Shown here in pieces: positions 14,984-30,373 of a stretch of 64,000 nt of DNA. The stretch's first letter is position 1; each line of letters begins with the position of its first letter. The DNA lies in contig NC_013517.1 of assembly GCF_000024405.1 (NCBI RefSeq), positions 434,001 through 498,000 of the forward strand, in the 5' to 3' direction. The notes under the pieces are model-generated. The model made no database searches. It had not been told where the DNA came from and saw only the letters and a list, made by a program, of their open reading frames with translations. The position numbers were made by a program, and so were the translations under genes. Origin of the DNA: Sebaldella termitidis ATCC 33386. GTDB lineage: Bacteria; Fusobacteriota; Fusobacteriia; Fusobacteriales; Leptotrichiaceae.

Positions 14984-15250
14984 ATGAGAAAACAAAAGAA
15001 TTATGATAATGTATTTAAACAGACGATACTAAAATTACATGAAAATGGGAAGAGTTTGAAAGAATTATCACGTGAATATCTTGTTTCTACACAAAGTATA
15101 GGAGCTTGGAAAAAAGCATCAAAAAAAATAGGAACAGAAAAAGGGAAGGGTATAGCATACGAAGAATTACTGGAATTAAGAAAAAAAGCAAAAGATCTGG
15201 AACGTGATAAAGTACTAGACTTATATCACTGTTTTTTATATAATATTTAG
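14984..15250 (+). pseudogene. Truncated IS3-family orfA (helix-turn-helix transposase subunit)
   Basis: Residues 1-75 match the IS3/IS150-type OrfA pattern: KQTILKLHENGKSLKELSREY, then the second helix of the HTH, then a leucine-rich coiled start (ELLELRKKAKDLERD). The expected continuation is missing; after ERD the frame runs 14 residues into unrelated DNA. An IS-like end with TGTTACACTAAAAACCTGGAC lies at 14913-14933. OrfB is absent, so the element is a dead 5' fragment. Confidence 0.8.
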
Positions 15251-15371
15251 TGTGTACAAAATAAAAATAGGGATGAGAAAAAACAGCACAAATGTTTATT
15301 TTTCATGCTTTTATGATACAGGAAATTCGTTCTTCTATTGAAATCTTTGACGTTACAGAAAAGTATGCTTT

Positions 15372-19103: not shown

Positions 19104-19920
19104 TTAAAGTTTGTTTTTCAAAAATTCTACAGGGCTTAAATATCCTAATGTAGAATGTATTCTATAATTGTTAAATCAATTAATGTAGTCTTCTAATTCA
19201 TTTAAAGTACTAAATATACTGTTATTAATAAATTCTGTTTTAAATATTTTAAAAGTAGACTCTACTACTGCATTATCATATGGATTTCCTTTTCTACTCA
19301 AAGACCGTGATATTCCAAAGGTACCAAGGGCTTCATCGATAATGTGATTATTAAATTCACTTCCTCTCTCTCTATGAAATATCTTTATCTTTTTCAAATT
19401 CACTTTTATCCTTGCCTGAGCTCTGTATACTAGTTCTGCATTCTTTTTTCTTCCTACACTGTATCCAACTATCTGTCTGTTAAAAATATCAACAAAAAGA
19501 CAAATGTAGTTCCATTTGCTGTTTACCCTAACATATGTGAGATTACTTACCAATATTTCTGGAGGTTTTTTACTTTTAAATTCCTTATTCAAAAGATTAC
19601 CAGTCTCATTTTCCGATATTTTGATATTAACAGGTTTGTAACTGGCTTTTGTATAGCTTGATACAAGACCTGATTTTTTCATTTTTCTACTGATTTTTCT
19701 TCTTGAAACTATATATTTTAATCTAGAAAGTTCAATTTTTATCTTTCTAGTCCCATAATTATTTCTACTATCTTTGAATATTTTTTTTATTGTCTGTTAT
19801 AAAATATCTGTATCTTCTTTTTTTACTGGTTTATAACAGTAAGTACTTCTTGACATTTTGAGGACACAGCACATTGCTGATACTGAATATTTATGTATAT
19901 TTGCTTTTATTACACTTATG
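19104..19920 (-). pseudogene. IS3-family orfB (DDE transposase), inactivated
   Basis: The integrase-core frame is readable, but two in-frame stops interrupt it: a TAA after KKEDTDIL, and a TGA where a Trp is expected after NELEDYIN. The last part (FNNYRIHSTLGYLSPVEFL) continues to a stop at 19104. Two of the catalytic acidic residues look altered: SNLTYVRV where the family has (T/S)DLTY, and HRERGSEF where it has HSDRG. It cannot encode an active transposase. Confidence 0.8.
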
Positions 19921-23038: not shown

Positions 23039-23280
23039 ATGTCTAGTATTATAAAAATAGGTAATTCTTATGGCACTTTAATTTCAAAAAAATCTTAGAT
23101 TCTCTTGATATAAAATTAGGTGATGAAATAGATTTAGAGGTTAAGGATGAGGGGGTTTTTATAAAGAAGCATGAAAAAACAGCTTTTAGAGAAAATTTTA
23201 TAAAAAGCTTTAAAGAGAACGGTGTAATAAATGACGAAAAAGAATGGTCAGATTGGCAGGGGTTTGAAGATGAGTTATAA
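23039..23280 (+). pseudogene. mazE: MazE/AbrB-type antitoxin with a frameshift
   Basis: The antitoxin should bind DNA by an AbrB/SpoVT swapped hairpin and neutralise MazF by its C-terminal tail. The first part (SIIKIGNSYGTLISKK) and the second (LDSLDIKLGDEIDLEVKDEGVFIKK, then an acidic tail with WSDWQGF) are both readable, but in different frames. The break is in a run of seven A at 23086-23092, where eight would restore the frame. The present frame stops after about 19 residues. It could be a real mutation, a slippage site or a sequencing error. The toxin gene overlaps its end. Confidence 0.8.
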
Positions 23281-23593
23281 AAAATATGAAATATTGTTAA
23301 TTAATTATGACCCGTTTGTAGGAACGGAAATAACAAAGACTAGACCGAATATTGTTATAAGCTCAGATATTTATAACAAATTATCAAATCAGTTGATTGC
23401 TGCCCCTATTACAAGTGTTCACAGACAATGGGGAACAAGAATTGACATTGATACGAAAAAAACTAAAGGACAAATTGCATTAGATCAAATGAGAAGTATA
23501 AGCTCTGTTAGAATAGTCAAGAAATTAGATACCCTAAAAGATGAAGAAACTAAGAAGAAAATAACAGAAACACTTGAAATAATTTTTGAATGA
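23270..23593 (+). CDS. mazF: MazF/PemK-family endoribonuclease toxin
   Basis: A 107-residue toxin of the type II mazEF class, which cuts mRNA at short sequences. The family signs are YDPFVGTEITKTRPNIVIS (substrate-loop region with the catalytic Arg) and QLIAAPITS, then GQIALDQMRSISSVRI. The ATG at 23270 overlaps the antitoxin stop by 11 bases and is preceded by a GGCAGGGG site; an upstream ATG at 23231 would add 13 residues encoded by the antitoxin overlap. The toxin frame is intact although the antitoxin frame is broken. Confidence 0.88.
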   Translation: MSYKKYEILLINYDPFVGTEITKTRPNIVISSDIYNKLSNQLIAAPITSVHRQWGTRIDIDTKKTKGQIALDQMRSISSVRIVKKLDTLKDEETKKKITETLEIIFE

Positions 23594-23744
23594 GGTGATT
23601 CAATGCTTTAAATAAATAGTGCGGTAGACAAATTTCCGAATATATTCACGCATGTTCGGTAGTTGATCTAAATTCAAAAATGAACTAAAAAAATGACAAA
23701 AGTGAAAATATTTGAAAGTTTCATTCACAGCTCTGAAGAAATAT

Positions 23745-24005
23745 AAAACAAAGCATGATGAGATGGTGAGATAATAAAGTCTTATAAGTGTGAAGGATAC
23801 TAGCTATTATAAGAATAATTATTGCAATAAGGCTCATCATGATGTGTTCCTCCAAATTTATGGATGACGGCTCGCTCTAAAACTATAAAAAGGCCAGAAA
23901 CCATAACTATTATGGTCAAAGGTAGGGAGGAAACAACTAATGTTGTATGTATGGGATCATAATAATTATAGATAAAAGACCATGCTTTGTCATAGTCTTT
24001 TTATA
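23745..24005 (+). ncRNA. Candidate structured RNA of about 260 nt with terminator
   Basis: Part of a gene-free 650-base gap, and less AT-rich than its surroundings. Several stems can be drawn: CATGATGAG (23754-23762) with CTCATCATG (23833-23841); CTTATAA (23781-23787) with TTATAAG (23807-23813) inside it; CCATAA (23901-23906) with TTATGG (23910-23915). It ends in a terminator AAAAGAC (23974-23980) with GTCTTTTT. No open reading frame of note. I do not recognise a family. It may be an sRNA or the leader of the operon starting at 24243. The remainder of the gap is AT-rich with several TATAAT-like boxes. Confidence 0.45.
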
Positions 24006-24242
24006 TAACCATAAAATAAAAAAATCTATAAATTAAAAAACTATAATATATAATCTTCACATAAACTTCATATGAATATGATATAAAAAAGAAAATTTTA
24101 TTTAAATAATTAAGTATAAATATTTAATATATATTATTTGTGTGATATAATAATTAAATTAATAAATATAAAAATAATGTAATATTATGTAAATAATTTT
24201 AAAAAATAAAATTATAAAAGCGGTATAAATGAAAGGGAGTTT

Positions 24243-25430
24243 ATGAAGGATGAGTTTGTACAGGAAGTAATAAGGTATACTTTGGGAGAAGTAAATGAAG
24301 AATTAAACAGAAAGTTTTTTGATTTACGTAATAAGATATTTAATTCTGTGGAATATTCTTATGATGAATATAATATTTACGGGACAGTAATCAGTAAGGA
24401 TGAATTAAAAATATTTGAAAATAATTTTTATCCTGTAATTCCGGAAGATTTAAATGTGGTTGATCTTTTGGAAGAGATAAATTTTTCAAAGGGGAAGATT
24501 TTTGTAGAGAATCTTTTTTTGAAAGAATCCTTGGGTGAGATAAAAGGGCTGGAAAACAGACCTGTCAGTGGTGTGATAAAAACTGACACGGGGGAATATA
24601 AAGCAACATTTCGTTTAGTTTCAGACAAAAGGTATTTTAATAAAATGGAGACATTATTCAGGATAACAGAAAAGAACAAGATAAACTATAAAGTAATAAA
24701 TATACCTTACATTTCAAAATTTATGTCAGTATATCTTACTGACTATGATAAAGATATTTTAAAATCTTCAAAAATAAAAGAGATAATATATAATTTGGAT
24801 GTTCCTGTATTAAGGGGGCATATTTTGTGTTGGAATATAAAAGAAAAGGAATTCGATAGTGAGGAGTATATAAAACCAGCAGAGGAGATACTGACATATG
24901 AGTATAAGGTTAAGATCCCGCTGGACAGGAAATATCTTCTTAATATAGAAAAAGGAGAGCTTATGCTTTCTTATCTTGAGGATCATGAAACTCTTGTTTT
25001 TGTGACGGGCGAAAAGACAGGGCACAGGCTGAAAATCTGGGAGATACTGGATAAAGCAGACAGTGAAACGGAAAAGTATCTTTCATATAAGGTGTACTCA
25101 AATGAAATGCATCTGCAAGACAGCGGGAATATACTCTACTATAAGGAGTCTGTAGCTGAATTTGTTGATAATCTTGGAGTAAAAGATGATATTGTTTTAT
25201 CTGATATAAAATTTGAGCTGGGGGAAAATGAGAGAGAAATGGAACTTTTGAATTTTATGTCTTTTTTGAAGGAAGAGTTTGAGATGAAGAATAAAAGAAG
25301 CAAGGTATATTTGAAATTTGATTTTGTGGATGACTATTTAAAAACAGAGATAATAAGCTATATTATCACAGCTTTGAATTATCAGAATAAGGATTTTGAG
25401 TTTTCAGTACTTGAAGAGGTGGATGAATGA
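24243..25430 (+). CDS. Unknown protein, first of a paralogous pair in the injection-system operon
   Basis: A 395-residue soluble protein, rich in Lys, Glu and Tyr, with no signal or membrane segment. Its centre (PVSGVIKTDTGEYKATFRL ... KINYKVINIPYISKFMSVYL) aligns by eye with the centre of the next protein (SFRGNLKLNGTSYNYEIS ... GIKWRVLYTPYSRRFFNLYI), so the two are diverged paralogues. Paired unequal paralogues suggest a hetero-oligomeric structural part, such as a baseplate-type component, but that is inference. The next gene starts inside its last codons (ATGA overlap), so they are co-translated. I do not recognise the family. Confidence 0.8.
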   Translation: MKDEFVQEVIRYTLGEVNEELNRKFFDLRNKIFNSVEYSYDEYNIYGTVISKDELKIFENNFYPVIPEDLNVVDLLEEINFSKGKIFVENLFLKESLGEIKGLENRPVSGVIKTDTGEYKATFRLVSDKRYFNKMETLFRITEKNKINYKVINIPYISKFMSVYLTDYDKDILKSSKIKEIIYNLDVPVLRGHILCWNIKEKEFDSEEYIKPAEEILTYEYKVKIPLDRKYLLNIEKGELMLSYLEDHETLVFVTGEKTGHRLKIWEILDKADSETEKYLSYKVYSNEMHLQDSGNILYYKESVAEFVDNLGVKDDIVLSDIKFELGENEREMELLNFMSFLKEEFEMKNKRSKVYLKFDFVDDYLKTEIISYIITALNYQNKDFEFSVLEEVDE

Positions 25431-26689
25431 AATACATAAAGTCTAAGATAATAAAGGAAACATTGAAAAAATTAGATTTAGAGGAAGAAAGAAAGTTTTT
25501 GAGAGATTTGACATCAAACGGGATTCAGTATATAGAGAATAATTTTGAGCTCCAGCTTCTTGAAATGGAGAAAAATATAGAAAACAGATATCTTGAGAAG
25601 GAGCAGGATTATACAATCTATTCTATGCCTGTAAACATAGAGATATATAATAAATATTCAGAGATATTCTTTCCATTGGATAAAAAAGATACAGAAAAAA
25701 AAGAAGAAATATTGAAAAGAAGCGGAAACAGGGTATTTTTAAGAAAAATATATTTAGATGAAGATTTAGGTAGAATAGATGAGTTTAAAAAGCAAAGTTT
25801 CAGAGGAAATCTTAAATTAAATGGAACTTCATATAATTATGAAATAAGCGTGGAATATGAAGAAAAGTATCTAAATCAGGAAAAAGAGATATTGAGTGTA
25901 TTTGGTAAGAATGGTATAAAGTGGCGGGTACTTTATACACCATACAGCAGAAGATTTTTTAATCTTTATATCAGCATGCTTCCGGATAATATAGGATTTG
26001 ATAAATTAGGAGAAGTAAAGATTAATTATGGTGAATTTACAGAAAGTGTGCATGAGAACTATTTTTTGGTAAGTAATATTCAGGAGAAAAGTATACTTTT
26101 GGATAAGGCAAGAGGAAAAACTATTGACGGGAATATGTCAAGATATAAGATTTATTCCAATGAGTCTAAAACGGATCTTGTGAAAATTACTGACGGAAAG
26201 ATATATGCCATAGAAAGATTTGAGAATTTTCTGCATATTTATACAGATACTGAGCCTGAAGACGAATGGAAGCTTTGGAATATAAGAAAAATAGACAAAA
26301 TGGAGAAATATTCAGATCTGAAATTTATTCCGAAAGGGAACAGGAAGAAAATAGATGTTCTGGGAGCTTTGAAGGAAAACTCGAAATCAAGGACAAGAAG
26401 TGAAAGCGAAGTGTTTGAGATAATAAAGAGTTATTCTGAGATAAAAGGTGTAAGGCTGGCAAAGGTAAAGCTGAATGAGTATGTCGGTAACCCTGTGCCA
26501 GGTTACGATTCGAACATAGCTTTTAATAAAACTGTGAGTATACCAAGGAAGAAAGAAGATACCTTATTTTTGTATTTCAAATATGAAAAACAGGATAAGT
26601 ATTTTTATGATGAAATAAGCTTTCTGCTCGCCAGTGTGGAGTATAAGTTTCCTGAATATAATGTGAAGGGGGTATTGGAATGGAGATGA
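25427..26689 (+). CDS. Unknown protein, second of the paralogous pair
   Basis: A 420-residue soluble protein related to the preceding one. Shared order: a charged helical N-terminus; a segment of the form FLRKIYLDEDLGRI (compare FVENLFLKESLGEI); a beta-rich core; a C-terminal region with LYFKYEKQDKYFYDEISFLLASVEYKFPEY (compare LKFDFVDDYLKTEIISYIITALNYQNKDF). It overlaps the upstream gene by 4 bases and the downstream one by 10. It is an unknown family, probably part of a complex with its paralogue and with the Hsp70-like protein of the same operon. Confidence 0.8.
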   Translation: MKYIKSKIIKETLKKLDLEEERKFLRDLTSNGIQYIENNFELQLLEMEKNIENRYLEKEQDYTIYSMPVNIEIYNKYSEIFFPLDKKDTEKKEEILKRSGNRVFLRKIYLDEDLGRIDEFKKQSFRGNLKLNGTSYNYEISVEYEEKYLNQEKEILSVFGKNGIKWRVLYTPYSRRFFNLYISMLPDNIGFDKLGEVKINYGEFTESVHENYFLVSNIQEKSILLDKARGKTIDGNMSRYKIYSNESKTDLVKITDGKIYAIERFENFLHIYTDTEPEDEWKLWNIRKIDKMEKYSDLKFIPKGNRKKIDVLGALKENSKSRTRSESEVFEIIKSYSEIKGVRLAKVKLNEYVGNPVPGYDSNIAFNKTVSIPRKKEDTLFLYFKYEKQDKYFYDEISFLLASVEYKFPEYNVKGVLEWR

Positions 26690-27396
26690 AAAAAGAACAG
26701 TATCAGTATATCTGGTATTCGCTTCATAAACTGATAAGTGAGGATAAAGATACTGAAAAGATATATTTCAAAGTATCGCCGAAAATCTCGCCATATATGG
26801 AACTGAATATGGAAGAGATAAATTACGCTGCTTTGGATAAGGAATATATATTGGAGACTAATCCTTTTTACAGATTTACTCATGTGTTTAATGAGTTTAT
26901 GAATCCCGATCTTCCGATTGGCGAAAAGCTGAAGGGGGAGATGGTTAATATACTTCTTCATATGCTTGGAAATCTGGATTTACAGGAAGGACTGAATAAG
27001 AGGATAATTCTGAACAGGATAATAATAAGGGAGCTGGAAGAGGGAAGATACGGAGAAGAGATACAGAAGTGTTTTAGTGTTTTGAACAGAAGGGAAAAGA
27101 TAGCAATAGCTGACGGGATACAGGATAAGTATAGATATGACAGGGAATGGGAGATATTCAAAAAGGTAATGTCAAAGATATATAAGGATTCTATAATTTA
27201 TGATTCTATAGATGAACAGGAGAAAATAATAATTTATATAAATGAGAAGAAGAGTTCCGAGAATAAGAAAAAGGAACTTTTGATAGAGAAGCTTTTTATG
27301 CCTTTAGGACTTAAGAGCAGATGTTTTTGGGGTGCACATTTTCCTGTATTGGGAGTAGATGAAGTGATGAGGATCGGGGAGATGGTTATTTTTTAG
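26680..27396 (+). CDS. Unknown helical protein of the injection-system operon
   Basis: A 238-residue, mostly helical soluble protein with no recognised motif. It has a compact hydrophobic C-terminus (MPLGLKSRCFWGAHFPVLGVDEVMRIGEMVIF). The ATG lies inside the last codons of the preceding gene, and AGGGGG is just upstream. The position between the paralogous pair and the Hsp70-like gene suggests a subunit or adaptor of the same complex; no biochemical role can be given. Confidence 0.75.
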   Translation: MEMKKEQYQYIWYSLHKLISEDKDTEKIYFKVSPKISPYMELNMEEINYAALDKEYILETNPFYRFTHVFNEFMNPDLPIGEKLKGEMVNILLHMLGNLDLQEGLNKRIILNRIIIRELEEGRYGEEIQKCFSVLNRREKIAIADGIQDKYRYDREWEIFKKVMSKIYKDSIIYDSIDEQEKIIIYINEKKSSENKKKELLIEKLFMPLGLKSRCFWGAHFPVLGVDEVMRIGEMVIF

Positions 27397-27424
27397 GGGG
27401 AATAATAAAAAGTAGGAGAGCGGA

Positions 27425-30373
27425 ATGAAAAAACTGTATCATGAGGAAGAATTAAGGGAAAAATCATATTATGACTTATATGAAATTGTAATAGAAGAAA
27501 GGATACTGGATTCATATGCAGCAACACCAACAAGGGAGCAGCTTATAAGTCTGCTTTTGAAATACAGGGGATACAGGCTTGAGAATAAAATCAGGGAATA
27601 TAATGAAAACGGTTTTTTTTATGTCCAGCAGTTTCTGGACAGAAAGCTTGGTAATAAATTACATCCTGAAGGAAGAATAAGAATACCGTATAAAATAATA
27701 ATATATAATGATCTGGATCTGACAAGGGAAGATAACTATAAAATAGTTATTCCGGAATATGTGAACAGCAGTAATGTTTTTCTGGTAAATGCCAATAATT
27801 ATTTATGCGGAATTCTTAGTCTGGAAAAAGATCTGGATTCGATGGATGAGTATTATCTGGTGAGTAAAAAGGAATTTTTGAATTTAGACGGACTAAAAAA
27901 CAGCAAATTTTCTCTGATATTTTTTAAAGAAAGAGATGCTAAGATTCCTTATGAATTCTATAATATGGAGGATATTGGAGAAATGTCGAGATATCCGGGA
28001 AAAATTGATTATTATTGTATAGGGATAGAAAATTTCGAGTACAGGGAGCTGGAAAAAACAACAGCAGTACTGTGTATAGACTTTGGGACGGCGAATACTA
28101 CAGCAGGAGTGTATCTTGACAGAAACTATGTGAGTAAGCTTCCAAGCAATGATATTCTGAATGGAAATATAAAACTAGATGAGATAAATTATGTAAAATT
28201 TCCTGACGGAGAGTGGGATTACAGTATAATCTACCCTACGATTACATATATTGAGAATTGTAAAGATGTGAAAGATATAAAATATCTGTTTGGTCATGAT
28301 GCAAGGAGAAAACTGGAGTCCAATGATTATATAGTAAACGGGACAATATTTTACGGATTAAAAAAATGGGTTTATGAAAATAATAAAAAAGAGAAAATAG
28401 TCGATGAATATGGGAATATGCGTGAGGTAGAGAGGAAAGAAATAATAAAGGCTTATTTGAAATATGTAATATCACGGGCAGAGTATTTATTTAAATGTAA
28501 GTTTACAAAGATACATGCCACAAGTCCTGTGAGACTGAAAGAGCAGTTTTTGAATATGTTGCAGGATATTTTTACTTTAGAAATAAAAAAAACAGGGAGA
28601 AGGGAAATAATAACTAAGATACCTGTACCAAGGAAAGAAATAAAAATAAATCTGGAAAAAAAATCAGATAAAATAGAAAACACAGAGACCAAAAATCTGA
28701 CAAATGAGGAAATTTTAGAAAAGTTTGGCGGTCATGGTGAAAGAGCAGATGAACTGAAAAATGAGCTTTTAATTTCTCAGATTGAAATAGATAATGAGTT
28801 TGCGGAAGAGGAAATTAAAGCTGTAAAAACAGATGAAATAAATGTAATTGAACAAATCATGGAAGATGATGAATATATTACGGAAATCACATATGTTGAT
28901 GAAGTAATCGGAAAAGAAACAGTTATGGAATATGAAGTAATAAGTGAAAATGCTATGGATGAAGCTGTAGCTGTTCTTTATAATACTATAGAATCAGGAC
29001 TGGGAAAGAAAAATTATGAAGAAGGTACAGAATATAAGGCTTTGGTAATAGACTGCGGTGGAGGAACAACAGATCTTGCAGCATGTAGTTTTCAGATAGG
29101 GAGCACTCTTGATGTGGCTTATCATCTAGAAATGAAAACGAGTTTTGAGAATAGTGATGAGAATTTTGGAGGGAATAATCTTACTTATCGGATAATGCAA
29201 TATTTGAAAATAATACTTGCCAATAATTATATAAATAATACAGAAATAAGCATAGAGAATTTAATACCATATGCTAAAGAGAGTATTTACAATTCAATAA
29301 ATGAAATAGGAATAGATAAAATTTTTGAAGTTTTTGAGGAAGAGTATCAAAAAGCTGAAAAAATAATTCCTACTAAATTTTCAAAATTTGAAAATAAACT
29401 AAGTGAAGAGTACAGGAAAATAAAGAGTAATTTTTATCTGCTTTGGGAAGCTGCTGAAAATCTCAAAAGAGAGTTTTTTAAGAAAGATGACACATTAAGG
29501 ACAAGATTTGACAAAGAAAAAAATTATGAAAAAAGGAATGATTTTCATATAACTGCATTACGAACATGGAATTTATATATTAATGAAAATGGAAGACTGG
29601 AGAAAGAAGCGGAATTTCCAAAGAATATTTTTACAATAAGAGAACTGGAAAAAATAATAAGGATTGATATTTATGAAATGCTTAGGAAATTTCTGGACAC
29701 TTATTATGACGGCGGAGAATTACAAGAATATGCACTGATAAAATTAAGCGGACAATCCACAAAAATCGGGATATTTCAGGATGTCTTAAAGGAATTTGTT
29801 CCCGGAAGGCAGATAGAATTCAAGACAAAGGATAATGAGAAGGACGGGTACGAACTGAAACTTGCCTGTCTGAACGGGGCAATAAAGTATCTGGATTACA
29901 GAAGATTCGGACATATGAATGTAACAATAAAGAATGAGATTCCTGTGATACCGTATTCAGTATGGGGGAAAACATATAAGAATGATGATGTAGAGATAAT
30001 AAAAACGTCAAACAGGGCAAATGAAAATCTCGGATATATAGATAAAGTATCTTCTGTCATGGAATTAAAACTGTATCTGAAAAATATGGAAGATGATGTC
30101 ATAAGAGAGATAGTATATAAGAATGACATAGATTTTGTGGATAAAGATGCCAAACCACTAATAGAGGGTCTTAGGATGAAAATAAGCCAGAATGAAACAG
30201 ATAATGTACCTAATGATATAACAAGATTTCTGGTTTATACAGATGAGAACTGCTGGGGGTTTTATATATGTCCGATCAGGAGAAAAGACGACCAGATATG
30301 GATGGGAAGAATAGATTATTATCCATTTGAAGATAAAATAAATGAAATAAGTTTTTTTGATGGCGAGCATTAA
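27425..30373 (+). CDS. Large Hsp70/actin-fold ATPase in a VgrG/PAAR operon
   Basis: A 982-residue protein with the two phosphate-binding loops of the Hsp70/actin superfamily: DFGTANTTAG at about residues 219-228 and DCGGGTTDLA at about 543. A 200-residue extra domain precedes loop 1, and a long acidic insert (about residues 400-510) separates the loops. The C-terminus is unlike the DnaK substrate domain. It may be an assembly chaperone for the spike or its effectors. It somewhat recalls SrfB-type virulence proteins, but I cannot confirm that. GGAGAG precedes the ATG; vgrG follows 35 bases later. Confidence 0.8.
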   Translation: MKKLYHEEELREKSYYDLYEIVIEERILDSYAATPTREQLISLLLKYRGYRLENKIREYNENGFFYVQQFLDRKLGNKLHPEGRIRIPYKIIIYNDLDLTREDNYKIVIPEYVNSSNVFLVNANNYLCGILSLEKDLDSMDEYYLVSKKEFLNLDGLKNSKFSLIFFKERDAKIPYEFYNMEDIGEMSRYPGKIDYYCIGIENFEYRELEKTTAVLCIDFGTANTTAGVYLDRNYVSKLPSNDILNGNIKLDEINYVKFPDGEWDYSIIYPTITYIENCKDVKDIKYLFGHDARRKLESNDYIVNGTIFYGLKKWVYENNKKEKIVDEYGNMREVERKEIIKAYLKYVISRAEYLFKCKFTKIHATSPVRLKEQFLNMLQDIFTLEIKKTGRREIITKIPVPRKEIKINLEKKSDKIENTETKNLTNEEILEKFGGHGERADELKNELLISQIEIDNEFAEEEIKAVKTDEINVIEQIMEDDEYITEITYVDEVIGKETVMEYEVISENAMDEAVAVLYNTIESGLGKKNYEEGTEYKALVIDCGGGTTDLAACSFQIGSTLDVAYHLEMKTSFENSDENFGGNNLTYRIMQYLKIILANNYINNTEISIENLIPYAKESIYNSINEIGIDKIFEVFEEEYQKAEKIIPTKFSKFENKLSEEYRKIKSNFYLLWEAAENLKREFFKKDDTLRTRFDKEKNYEKRNDFHITALRTWNLYINENGRLEKEAEFPKNIFTIRELEKIIRIDIYEMLRKFLDTYYDGGELQEYALIKLSGQSTKIGIFQDVLKEFVPGRQIEFKTKDNEKDGYELKLACLNGAIKYLDYRRFGHMNVTIKNEIPVIPYSVWGKTYKNDDVEIIKTSNRANENLGYIDKVSSVMELKLYLKNMEDDVIREIVYKNDIDFVDKDAKPLIEGLRMKISQNETDNVPNDITRFLVYTDENCWGFYICPIRRKDDQIWMGRIDYYPFEDKINEISFFDGEH

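What the first reader, a model, noticed from the sequence alone, without database searches (positions are those of the whole stretch)
23745..24005. Unassigned structured RNA candidate upstream of the injection operon
Several nested stems and a final terminator lie in a gene-free 650-base gap. It could be a regulatory sRNA, a riboswitch-like leader or part of a mobile element.
Basis: seen in the sequence. Interest (0 to 1): 0.5.

Follow-up and report, generated by a model that had tools for sequence, protein, structure and literature searches.

The report
Decayed copy of tandem toxin-antitoxin unit
The folded stretch is, read on the other strand, a worn-out copy of a small self-poisoning peptide gene; intact copies elsewhere in the same and related bacteria sit right behind a matching small RNA that should silence them, an arrangement I found no description of.

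Summary
On the minus strand the stretch holds a promoter-like site, a ribosome-binding site and a 19-codon hydrophobic peptide frame whose stop codon is now AAG (genome: Sebaldella termitidis). It is a diverged, probably dead copy of a dispersed repeat family. The consensus unit lies on one strand: promoter, a small RNA of about 65 nt ending in a terminator, a second -10 box, a leader hairpin, 14-16 nt complementary to the small RNA, Shine-Dalgarno, an 18-23 aa membrane-type peptide, then a 3' stretch that pairs with the Shine-Dalgarno. 73 intact units were found in 21 of 33 genomes of the bacterial family. In 56 non-redundant units small RNA and leader co-vary: cognate duplexes average -18.8, non-cognate -8.9 kcal/mol; 0 of 20,000 permutations as good. 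A second, 29-aa peptide family in Fusobacteriaceae has the same layout. Best reading: type I toxin-antitoxin modules with the antitoxin RNA gene in tandem upstream of its toxin. Toxicity and transcription are untested. The window copy has no detectable cognate antitoxin and is not a leader of the injection operon.

The parts
23784..23840 (-). 19-codon core of the peptide frame, MMSLIAIIILIIASILHTY
   Evidence: 10 of 19 residues identical, without gaps, to the L006 peptide; DNA match 23801-23872, 76% of 72 bases, E 5.8e-8
23781..23783 (-). AAG where L006 has the stop codon TAG; the frame now runs on to 39 codons
23721..23840 (-). frame as it now reads, stop codon included; its last codons lie in the duplicated flank
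23849..23853 (-). Shine-Dalgarno GGAGG
   Evidence: sequence; predicted unpaired probability 0.03 in the minus-strand transcript
23965..23993 (-). promoter-like ATGACA-17-TATAAT (-10 at 23965-23970)
   Evidence: 11 of 12 matches, but the number of promoter-like sites in the gap is not above shuffles (5 found, 6.1 expected); the position agrees with the family's second -10 box
23974..24002 (-). hairpin corresponding to the small-RNA terminator of the family
   Evidence: R1 match 23940-24014 minus strand, 20.6 bits, E 6e-4 in 1001 bases with filters off; plus strand 14.7 bits
23925..23934 (-). GTTTCCTCCC in the leader, predicted to pair with the Shine-Dalgarno
   Evidence: minimum-energy fold
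23901..23915 (-). leader hairpin CCATAATAGTTATGG
23833..23848 (-). start-codon arm of an inverted repeat
   Evidence: 88% complementary to 23747-23762
23747..23762 (-). distal arm that pairs with the start-codon arm
   Evidence: start codon unpaired probability 0.02
24005..24110 (-). place where the cognate small RNA should be; no complementarity to the leader above shuffles
   Evidence: 153 of 500 and 357 of 500 shuffles as good; in the same of 30 intact units beat all of 100 shuffles
23600..23741 (.). flanking block shared with a second MazF-linked remnant at C1:505055-505244; the similarity ends where the structured stretch begins

Best explanation
The stretch is a diverged, probably inactive copy, on the minus strand, of a repeat family that works like a type I toxin-antitoxin module with an unusual layout. 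In an intact unit one promoter makes a small RNA of about 65 nt that ends at a terminator; a second promoter, whose -10 box follows the terminator's T-run and whose -35 region would overlap its stem, makes the mRNA of an 18-23 aa membrane-type peptide from the same strand. The small RNA has two segments complementary to the mRNA leader: one to the loop of a 5' hairpin, one of about 14-16 nt to the mostly single-stranded stretch abutting the Shine-Dalgarno. The full-length mRNA hides its Shine-Dalgarno by pairing with a stretch behind the stop codon. Inferred working: the mRNA is made locked; the small RNA binds the landing stretch beside the Shine-Dalgarno and stops ribosome loading and/or triggers RNase III cleavage; if the small RNA is lost, for instance with a plasmid, the peptide is made and disturbs the membrane. 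Shown here: layout, co-variation, peptide-level selection, multi-copy and plasmid occurrence. Inferred: transcription, inhibition, toxicity. In the window copy the stop codon, most of the complementary segment and any recognisable cognate small RNA are gone.
For: Window copy to family: DNA match to L006 E 5.8e-8, same peptide register, R1 match just upstream on the same strand. Family: 20 curated units, cognate small RNA-leader duplex -20.9 against -9.3 kcal/mol, best in 19 of 20 rows and 18 of 20 columns, 0 of 100,000 permutations as good; 56 non-redundant units -18.8 against -8.9, best in 39 of 56 rows and 39 of 56 columns, 0 of 20,000; 12 or more of the 14 nt abutting the Shine-Dalgarno pair in 41 of 56 cognate and 164 of 3080 non-cognate combinations. 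Terminator and leader stems: 92.5% of cells paired, 12 of 13 pairs with changes on both sides, 0 of 500 shuffles. Shine-Dalgarno with 3' tail: -11.9 cognate against -9.4, 0 of 20,000 permutations. Peptide: changes 289/160/599 at codon positions 1/2/3 over 143 pairs; single-change codons 418 synonymous against 163 expected. TA[TC]AAT ahead of the small RNA in 49 of 56 and TATAAT behind its terminator in 54 of 56. Intact units on both plasmids of this genome. Same layout with an unrelated peptide: 14 of 14 cognate best in row.
Against: No transcript or toxicity data. 15 of 56 units fall short of 12 of 14 pairs and 17 of 56 cognate duplexes are not the best in their row, in part because of near-identical array neighbours or decayed copies. 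Cutting the 3' end frees the Shine-Dalgarno (probability above 0.5) in only 19 of 54 units. Units count as sequences, not as independent events. For the window copy: the R1 score is weak (not reported in a default search of the whole window), its leader is about 110 nt instead of 43-58 nt, and the tie to the family rests mainly on one relative, L006.
Confidence: 0.74

Rival explanations
1. The window copy is a living orphan: a 39-aa membrane peptide controlled only by its own folded mRNA, without an antitoxin RNA.
For: Promoter-like site of 11 of 12 matches, strong Shine-Dalgarno, start codon and Shine-Dalgarno both predicted paired (0.02 and 0.03 unpaired), minus-strand fold z -4.43.
Against: The stop codon after residue 19 is lost and the C-terminus comes from an unrelated duplicated flank; no copy of this 39-aa form found elsewhere; five of the 11 other copies that R1 finds in this genome are visibly broken.
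Confidence: 0.15
2. A plus-strand structured leader or sRNA that serves the downstream injection operon.
For: Plus strand folds with z -2.86; hairpin at 23974-24002 followed by a T-run on the plus strand.
Against: Minus strand folds better and matches R1 better (20.6 against 14.7 bits); no Rfam match; the only relative found (L006) keeps the minus-strand peptide frame and sits in a conjugative-type region, not beside an injection operon; about 240 bases with a separate promoter-like site lie between the hairpin and the operon.
Confidence: 0.06
3. The family is real but not toxin-antitoxin: a small membrane peptide for housekeeping or stress, controlled in cis, with the two complementary segments acting within one read-through transcript as a lock or attenuator.
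For: Both segments lie on one strand, so a read-through RNA would pair with itself; no direct proof of two transcripts.
Against: A terminator and a second -10 box lie between the segments in nearly all units; multi-copy, plasmid-borne and tandem-array occurrence, frequent loss of the frame and orphan small-RNA copies fit a module of selfish or addictive kind better; a second, unrelated peptide family uses the same layout.
Confidence: 0.15
4. A fragment of an insertion sequence or other transposon end.
For: An IS3-type transposase frame lies 4 kb away (19176-19682, integrase core) and the left flank is a segmental duplication.
Against: No other copy of 23742-24060 in the genome at E 1e-3 or better; related units code for a selected peptide.
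Confidence: 0.03

Closest known systems
tisB/istR-1 and the other divergent type I pairs (shoB/ohsC, zor/orz, dinQ/agrB) of E. coli
   Same: Antitoxin RNA is a separate, non-overlapping gene beside the toxin and pairs with the leader upstream of a structured ribosome-binding site; IstR-1 pairs with the standby site (passages of PMC4147584, and PMC8309996).
   Different: There the two genes diverge; here they lie in tandem on one strand, the small RNA first, its terminator stem overlapping the toxin's promoter region. Peptide and host phylum differ.
Ibs/Sib of E. coli
   Same: Multi-copy module with a 19-aa hydrophobic peptide (the Pfam Ibs_toxin model has 19 positions).
   Different: Pfam Ibs_toxin: E. 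coli control over the cut-off, 0 of 4 Sebaldella genomes. Sib RNAs overlap the whole toxin frame in antisense (PMC4147584, passages); here there is no overlap.
hok/sok and aapA1/isoA1
   Same: Toxin mRNA locked by long-range pairing of its ends (recalled, not looked up in a call).
   Different: Antisense antitoxins (recalled); unrelated peptides; 3' trimming as the switch is not supported clearly here.
Fst/Ldr superfamily
   Same: The second, 29-aa peptide family found here in Fusobacteriaceae ends in tryptophans and basic residues, as I recall for Ldr.
   Different: No Pfam or NCBIfam match at E up to 10; tandem antitoxin rather than an overlapping one.

Membership tests
Type I toxin-antitoxin module (intact units) | short hydrophobic peptide with a ribosome-binding site, under selection as a peptide | tested here: met
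   73 units of 18-23 aa, mean hydropathy 1.64; changes concentrated at codon position 3
Type I toxin-antitoxin module (intact units) | RNA with specific complementarity to the toxin mRNA | tested here: met
   cognate against non-cognate tests
Type I toxin-antitoxin module (intact units) | RNA is transcribed as a separate small RNA | tested here: inconclusive
   promoter-like site and terminator conserved, but no transcript data
Type I toxin-antitoxin module (intact units) | peptide toxic when expressed, RNA neutralises it | not testable with these tools
   needs expression in a laboratory strain
Type I toxin-antitoxin module (window copy) | peptide frame of family length with cognate RNA | tested here: not met
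   stop codon lost; no complementarity above shuffles
Ibs/Sib | Ibs_toxin profile PF13956 | tested here: not met
   0 of 4 Sebaldella genomes over the cut-off; E. coli control over it
Ibs/Sib | antitoxin antisense to the whole frame | tested here: not met
   small RNA lies upstream on the same strand in the intact units
tisB/istR-1 type | divergent toxin and antitoxin genes | tested here: not met
   tandem, same strand
tisB/istR-1 type | antitoxin pairs with a single-stranded stretch upstream of a structured ribosome-binding site | tested here: met
   in silico only: the 14 nt before the Shine-Dalgarno unpaired 0.75 on average, Shine-Dalgarno below 0.3 in 54 of 54; the standby function itself is not tested
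Any Rfam family | match at gathering score | tested here: not met
   window at gathering score: only a tRNA elsewhere; 18 loci with units, by E-value: no match over a unit reaches its gathering score

The most novel reading that the evidence does not exclude
Fusobacteriota carry a widespread, previously undescribed architecture of type I toxin-antitoxin modules: the antitoxin RNA gene sits in tandem directly upstream of the toxin on the same strand, the antitoxin's terminator stem doubling as the toxin promoter's -35 region, and at least two peptide families without detectable sequence kinship use it, with up to eleven intact, largely orthogonal pairs in one genome.
Probability: 0.7. Interest if true: 0.78.

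Novelty: new variant of a known kind. Interest (0 to 1): 0.68.

Why it matters
A 2025 paper states that type I systems were known only from Proteobacteria, Firmicutes and Tenericutes, and adds a cyanobacterial case (PMC12390103, abstract and passages). If the modules here are toxic and neutralised, type I modules reach a further phylum, with a layout in which toxin and antitoxin are not antisense to each other by position and so must co-evolve as matched pairs: a natural set of dozens of small RNA-target pairs within one family of bacteria, useful for asking how RNA specificity arises. It would also explain unannotated short repeats on fusobacterial plasmids and in mobile regions. The window copy alone is a minor relic.

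Tried and rejected
Rfam matches: only chance-level hits in the gap. A plus-strand leader of the injection operon: rejected on strand preference and position. Phage or plasmid records with the window stretch: 15 phage records with the same 29-nt chance match, no plasmid. Protein search with the 39-aa frame: nothing convincing beyond itself; hydrophobic peptides score weakly. DNA search with the window's leader: only itself and five short weak matches. Viral contigs for two core patterns: none; such exact patterns are narrow, so this is weak evidence. Ibs membership: rejected. Cetobacterium plasmid match H16: lies inside an antiporter gene. R1 hits outside the family: 8 of 63 genomes, 34.6-43.3 bits; seven of the eight loci (L138-L144) were examined and have no peptide frame behind them; the eighth (L146) fell under my 35-bit cut.

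Rows dropped before counts: R1 hits under 35 bits; 41 of 117 hits without a qualifying frame, and fewer under the stricter 17-24 aa rule (73 kept); 17 of those 73 as too similar to another or too close to a contig end, leaving 56; two of 22 hand-picked units (L098, near-duplicate of L097; L106, no recognisable small RNA); two of 16 loci without a clear frame; two of 56 units without a placed -10 box. mis-assigned the start codon in a few rows (for example L182, L189); one search uses the stricter rule. The alignment A1 was not used for counts because its ends were misaligned.

Full report
What the stretch is. The window is part of the chromosome of Sebaldella termitidis: its genome has 4,486,650 bases in three contigs of 4,418,842, 54,160 and 13,648 bases, the sizes given for the type strain (PMC3035275, passages). 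Rfam has nothing there at threshold.

Minus-strand reading. On the minus strand lie, in order: hairpin 24002-23974, a promoter-like ATGACA-17-TATAAT 23993-23965, a leader, GGAGG 23853-23849 and ATG at 23840. The first 19 codons, MMSLIAIIILIIASILHTY, align without a gap to a 19-aa frame in another Sebaldella (L006; its contig is JAGOZX010000020.1, MAG Sebaldella sp.): 10 of 19 residues, and 76% of 72 bases at E 5.8e-8. L006 then has TAG where the window has AAG, so the window frame runs on to 39 codons, into a block that is shared with a second MazF-linked remnant about 47 kb away.

A family appears. The L006 unit, used as a DNA query over 96 genomes of the order, found many copies in Sebaldella, among them seven places in this genome other than the window, one on the 13.6-kb plasmid. 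Read side by side they show one layout, all on one strand: promoter; small RNA with segments A and B; terminator; TATAAT; leader hairpin whose loop is complementary to B; A', complementary to A; GGAGG; a peptide of about 19 aa; a TTCCTC-type stretch complementary to the Shine-Dalgarno; usually a terminator.

Statistics on the small RNA. In 20 hand-curated units the small RNA fits its own leader far better than those of others (-20.9 against -9.3 kcal/mol; best in 19 of 20 rows and 18 of 20 columns; 0 of 100,000 permutations as good). A covariance model, R1, was built from the core only (segment B to leader hairpin), so A and A' do not enter it; its 13 pairs co-vary strongly. R1 has matches at E 1e-3 or better in 30 of 96 genomes: 22 of the 33 in the family, and 8 of the 63 others, the latter weak. 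Of 117 hits of 35 bits or more that I examined, 76 had a qualifying frame; by a stricter rule there are 73 intact units in 21 of the 33 family genomes, 6 of them in this genome, where R1 finds 11 copies, and 11 in one Sebaldella. In 56 non-redundant units the co-variation holds (-18.8 against -8.9; 0 of 20,000), also in the 14 nt abutting the Shine-Dalgarno: 41 of 56 cognate against 164 of 3080 non-cognate combinations reach 12 of 14 pairs. Against this, 17 of 56 cognate duplexes are not the best in their row; several of these sit in tandem arrays of near-identical units (L182, L111) or look decayed (L106).

Peptide and messenger. The peptide is selected as a peptide: over 143 pairs of related frames, differences fall 289/160/599 on codon positions 1/2/3, and 418 of 716 single-change codons are synonymous where 163 were expected; pairs share ancestry, so this is a tendency, not a probability. 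The messenger seems locked: Shine-Dalgarno unpaired probability under 0.3 in 54 of 54 folded units, and A' open at 0.75 on average; pairing of the Shine-Dalgarno region with the tail is better for cognate combinations than for permuted ones. Removing the 3' end frees the Shine-Dalgarno clearly in only 19 of 54, so I do not claim that 3' trimming is the switch.

A second peptide family. A blastn match in a Fusobacterium varium plasmid (AP017970.1) showed the same layout with a different, 29-aa peptide. Its relatives occur in 11 of 96 genomes of the order. In 14 of 16 loci I could set a frame, and in 14 of 14 the cognate complementarity was the best in its row (-21.1 against -10.5 kcal/mol). R1 does not recognise this family (10.9 bits, and not over the unit), and Pfam and NCBIfam have no match. 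The layout is therefore wider than one sequence family.

Mechanism. Shown: tandem layout, matched complementarity beside the Shine-Dalgarno, a messenger locked in silico, selection on the peptide, and carriage on both plasmids and in mobile-looking regions (L036, whose VirB4- and ArdC-like frames are my reading and not tested; L230 with AAA_15, Bro-N and a weak MqsA-like match). Inferred: the small RNA blocks ribosome loading or directs cleavage, and the peptide harms the membrane when the RNA is gone. This resembles tisB/istR-1 as described in reviews (passages), but the gene order differs. It is not Ibs by profile, although the length is the same.

The window copy. R1 matches it on the minus strand with 20.6 bits when only 1001 bases are searched without filters; a default search of the whole window does not report it. 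Its leader is about 110 nt instead of 43-58 nt, A' is nearly gone, upstream complementarity is not above shuffles, and the stop codon is lost. I conclude that it is a relic; a living orphan is the main rival.

Literature. Searches for Sebaldella, Leptotrichia or Fusobacteriota together with type I toxin terms returned no paper. Searches for same-strand, same-orientation or tandem type I pairs gave nothing of this kind (listings and, for two papers, passages). A Fusobacterium nucleatum transcriptome paper mentions toxin only in its reference list (PMC11005410, find). PMC12390103 (abstract and passages) names the phyla with known type I systems. The T1TAdb paper and a 2010 survey that I tried by a recalled DOI are not held, so an earlier mention there cannot be excluded.

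Noticed in passing
window 23039-23593: MazF/PemK-like toxin frame (PF02452) with a MazE-like antitoxin frame just upstream that looks frameshifted (my reading).
   Followed up: partly
window 23600-23741 and L033 (C1:503000-507500): Segmental duplication including the Crp-like regulator and MazF remnant; in the second copy a small plus-strand frame beginning MTKVKIFESFIHSS is intact, in the window it is cut off at the junction.
   Followed up: partly
L182 (G025 C1:1943000-1945000) and L111 (G028 C78): Tandem arrays of the units with a period of about 295 bases.
   Followed up: no
L036 8484-8538 and L089, L101: Small-RNA parts without a peptide frame behind them: possible orphan antitoxins or relics.
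   Followed up: no
L168, L184, L193, L199 and L185, L194: Two further peptide types (MERDIIYIII... and MIHQDFIMFII...) with strong cognate duplexes (-24 to -29 kcal/mol) but tails unlike the rest; possibly separate subfamilies.
   Followed up: no
L206 (Fusobacterium varium plasmid AP017970.1): 29-aa peptide unit with the same layout in an unannotated gap beside trbJ.
   Followed up: yes
window 15199-15268, plus strand: Weak R1 match, 19.9 bits, E 0.054.
   Followed up: no
window 24243-30370: Four consecutive frames of the putative injection operon (395, 420, 238 and 982 aa) have no Pfam match at E 1e-3.
   Followed up: no
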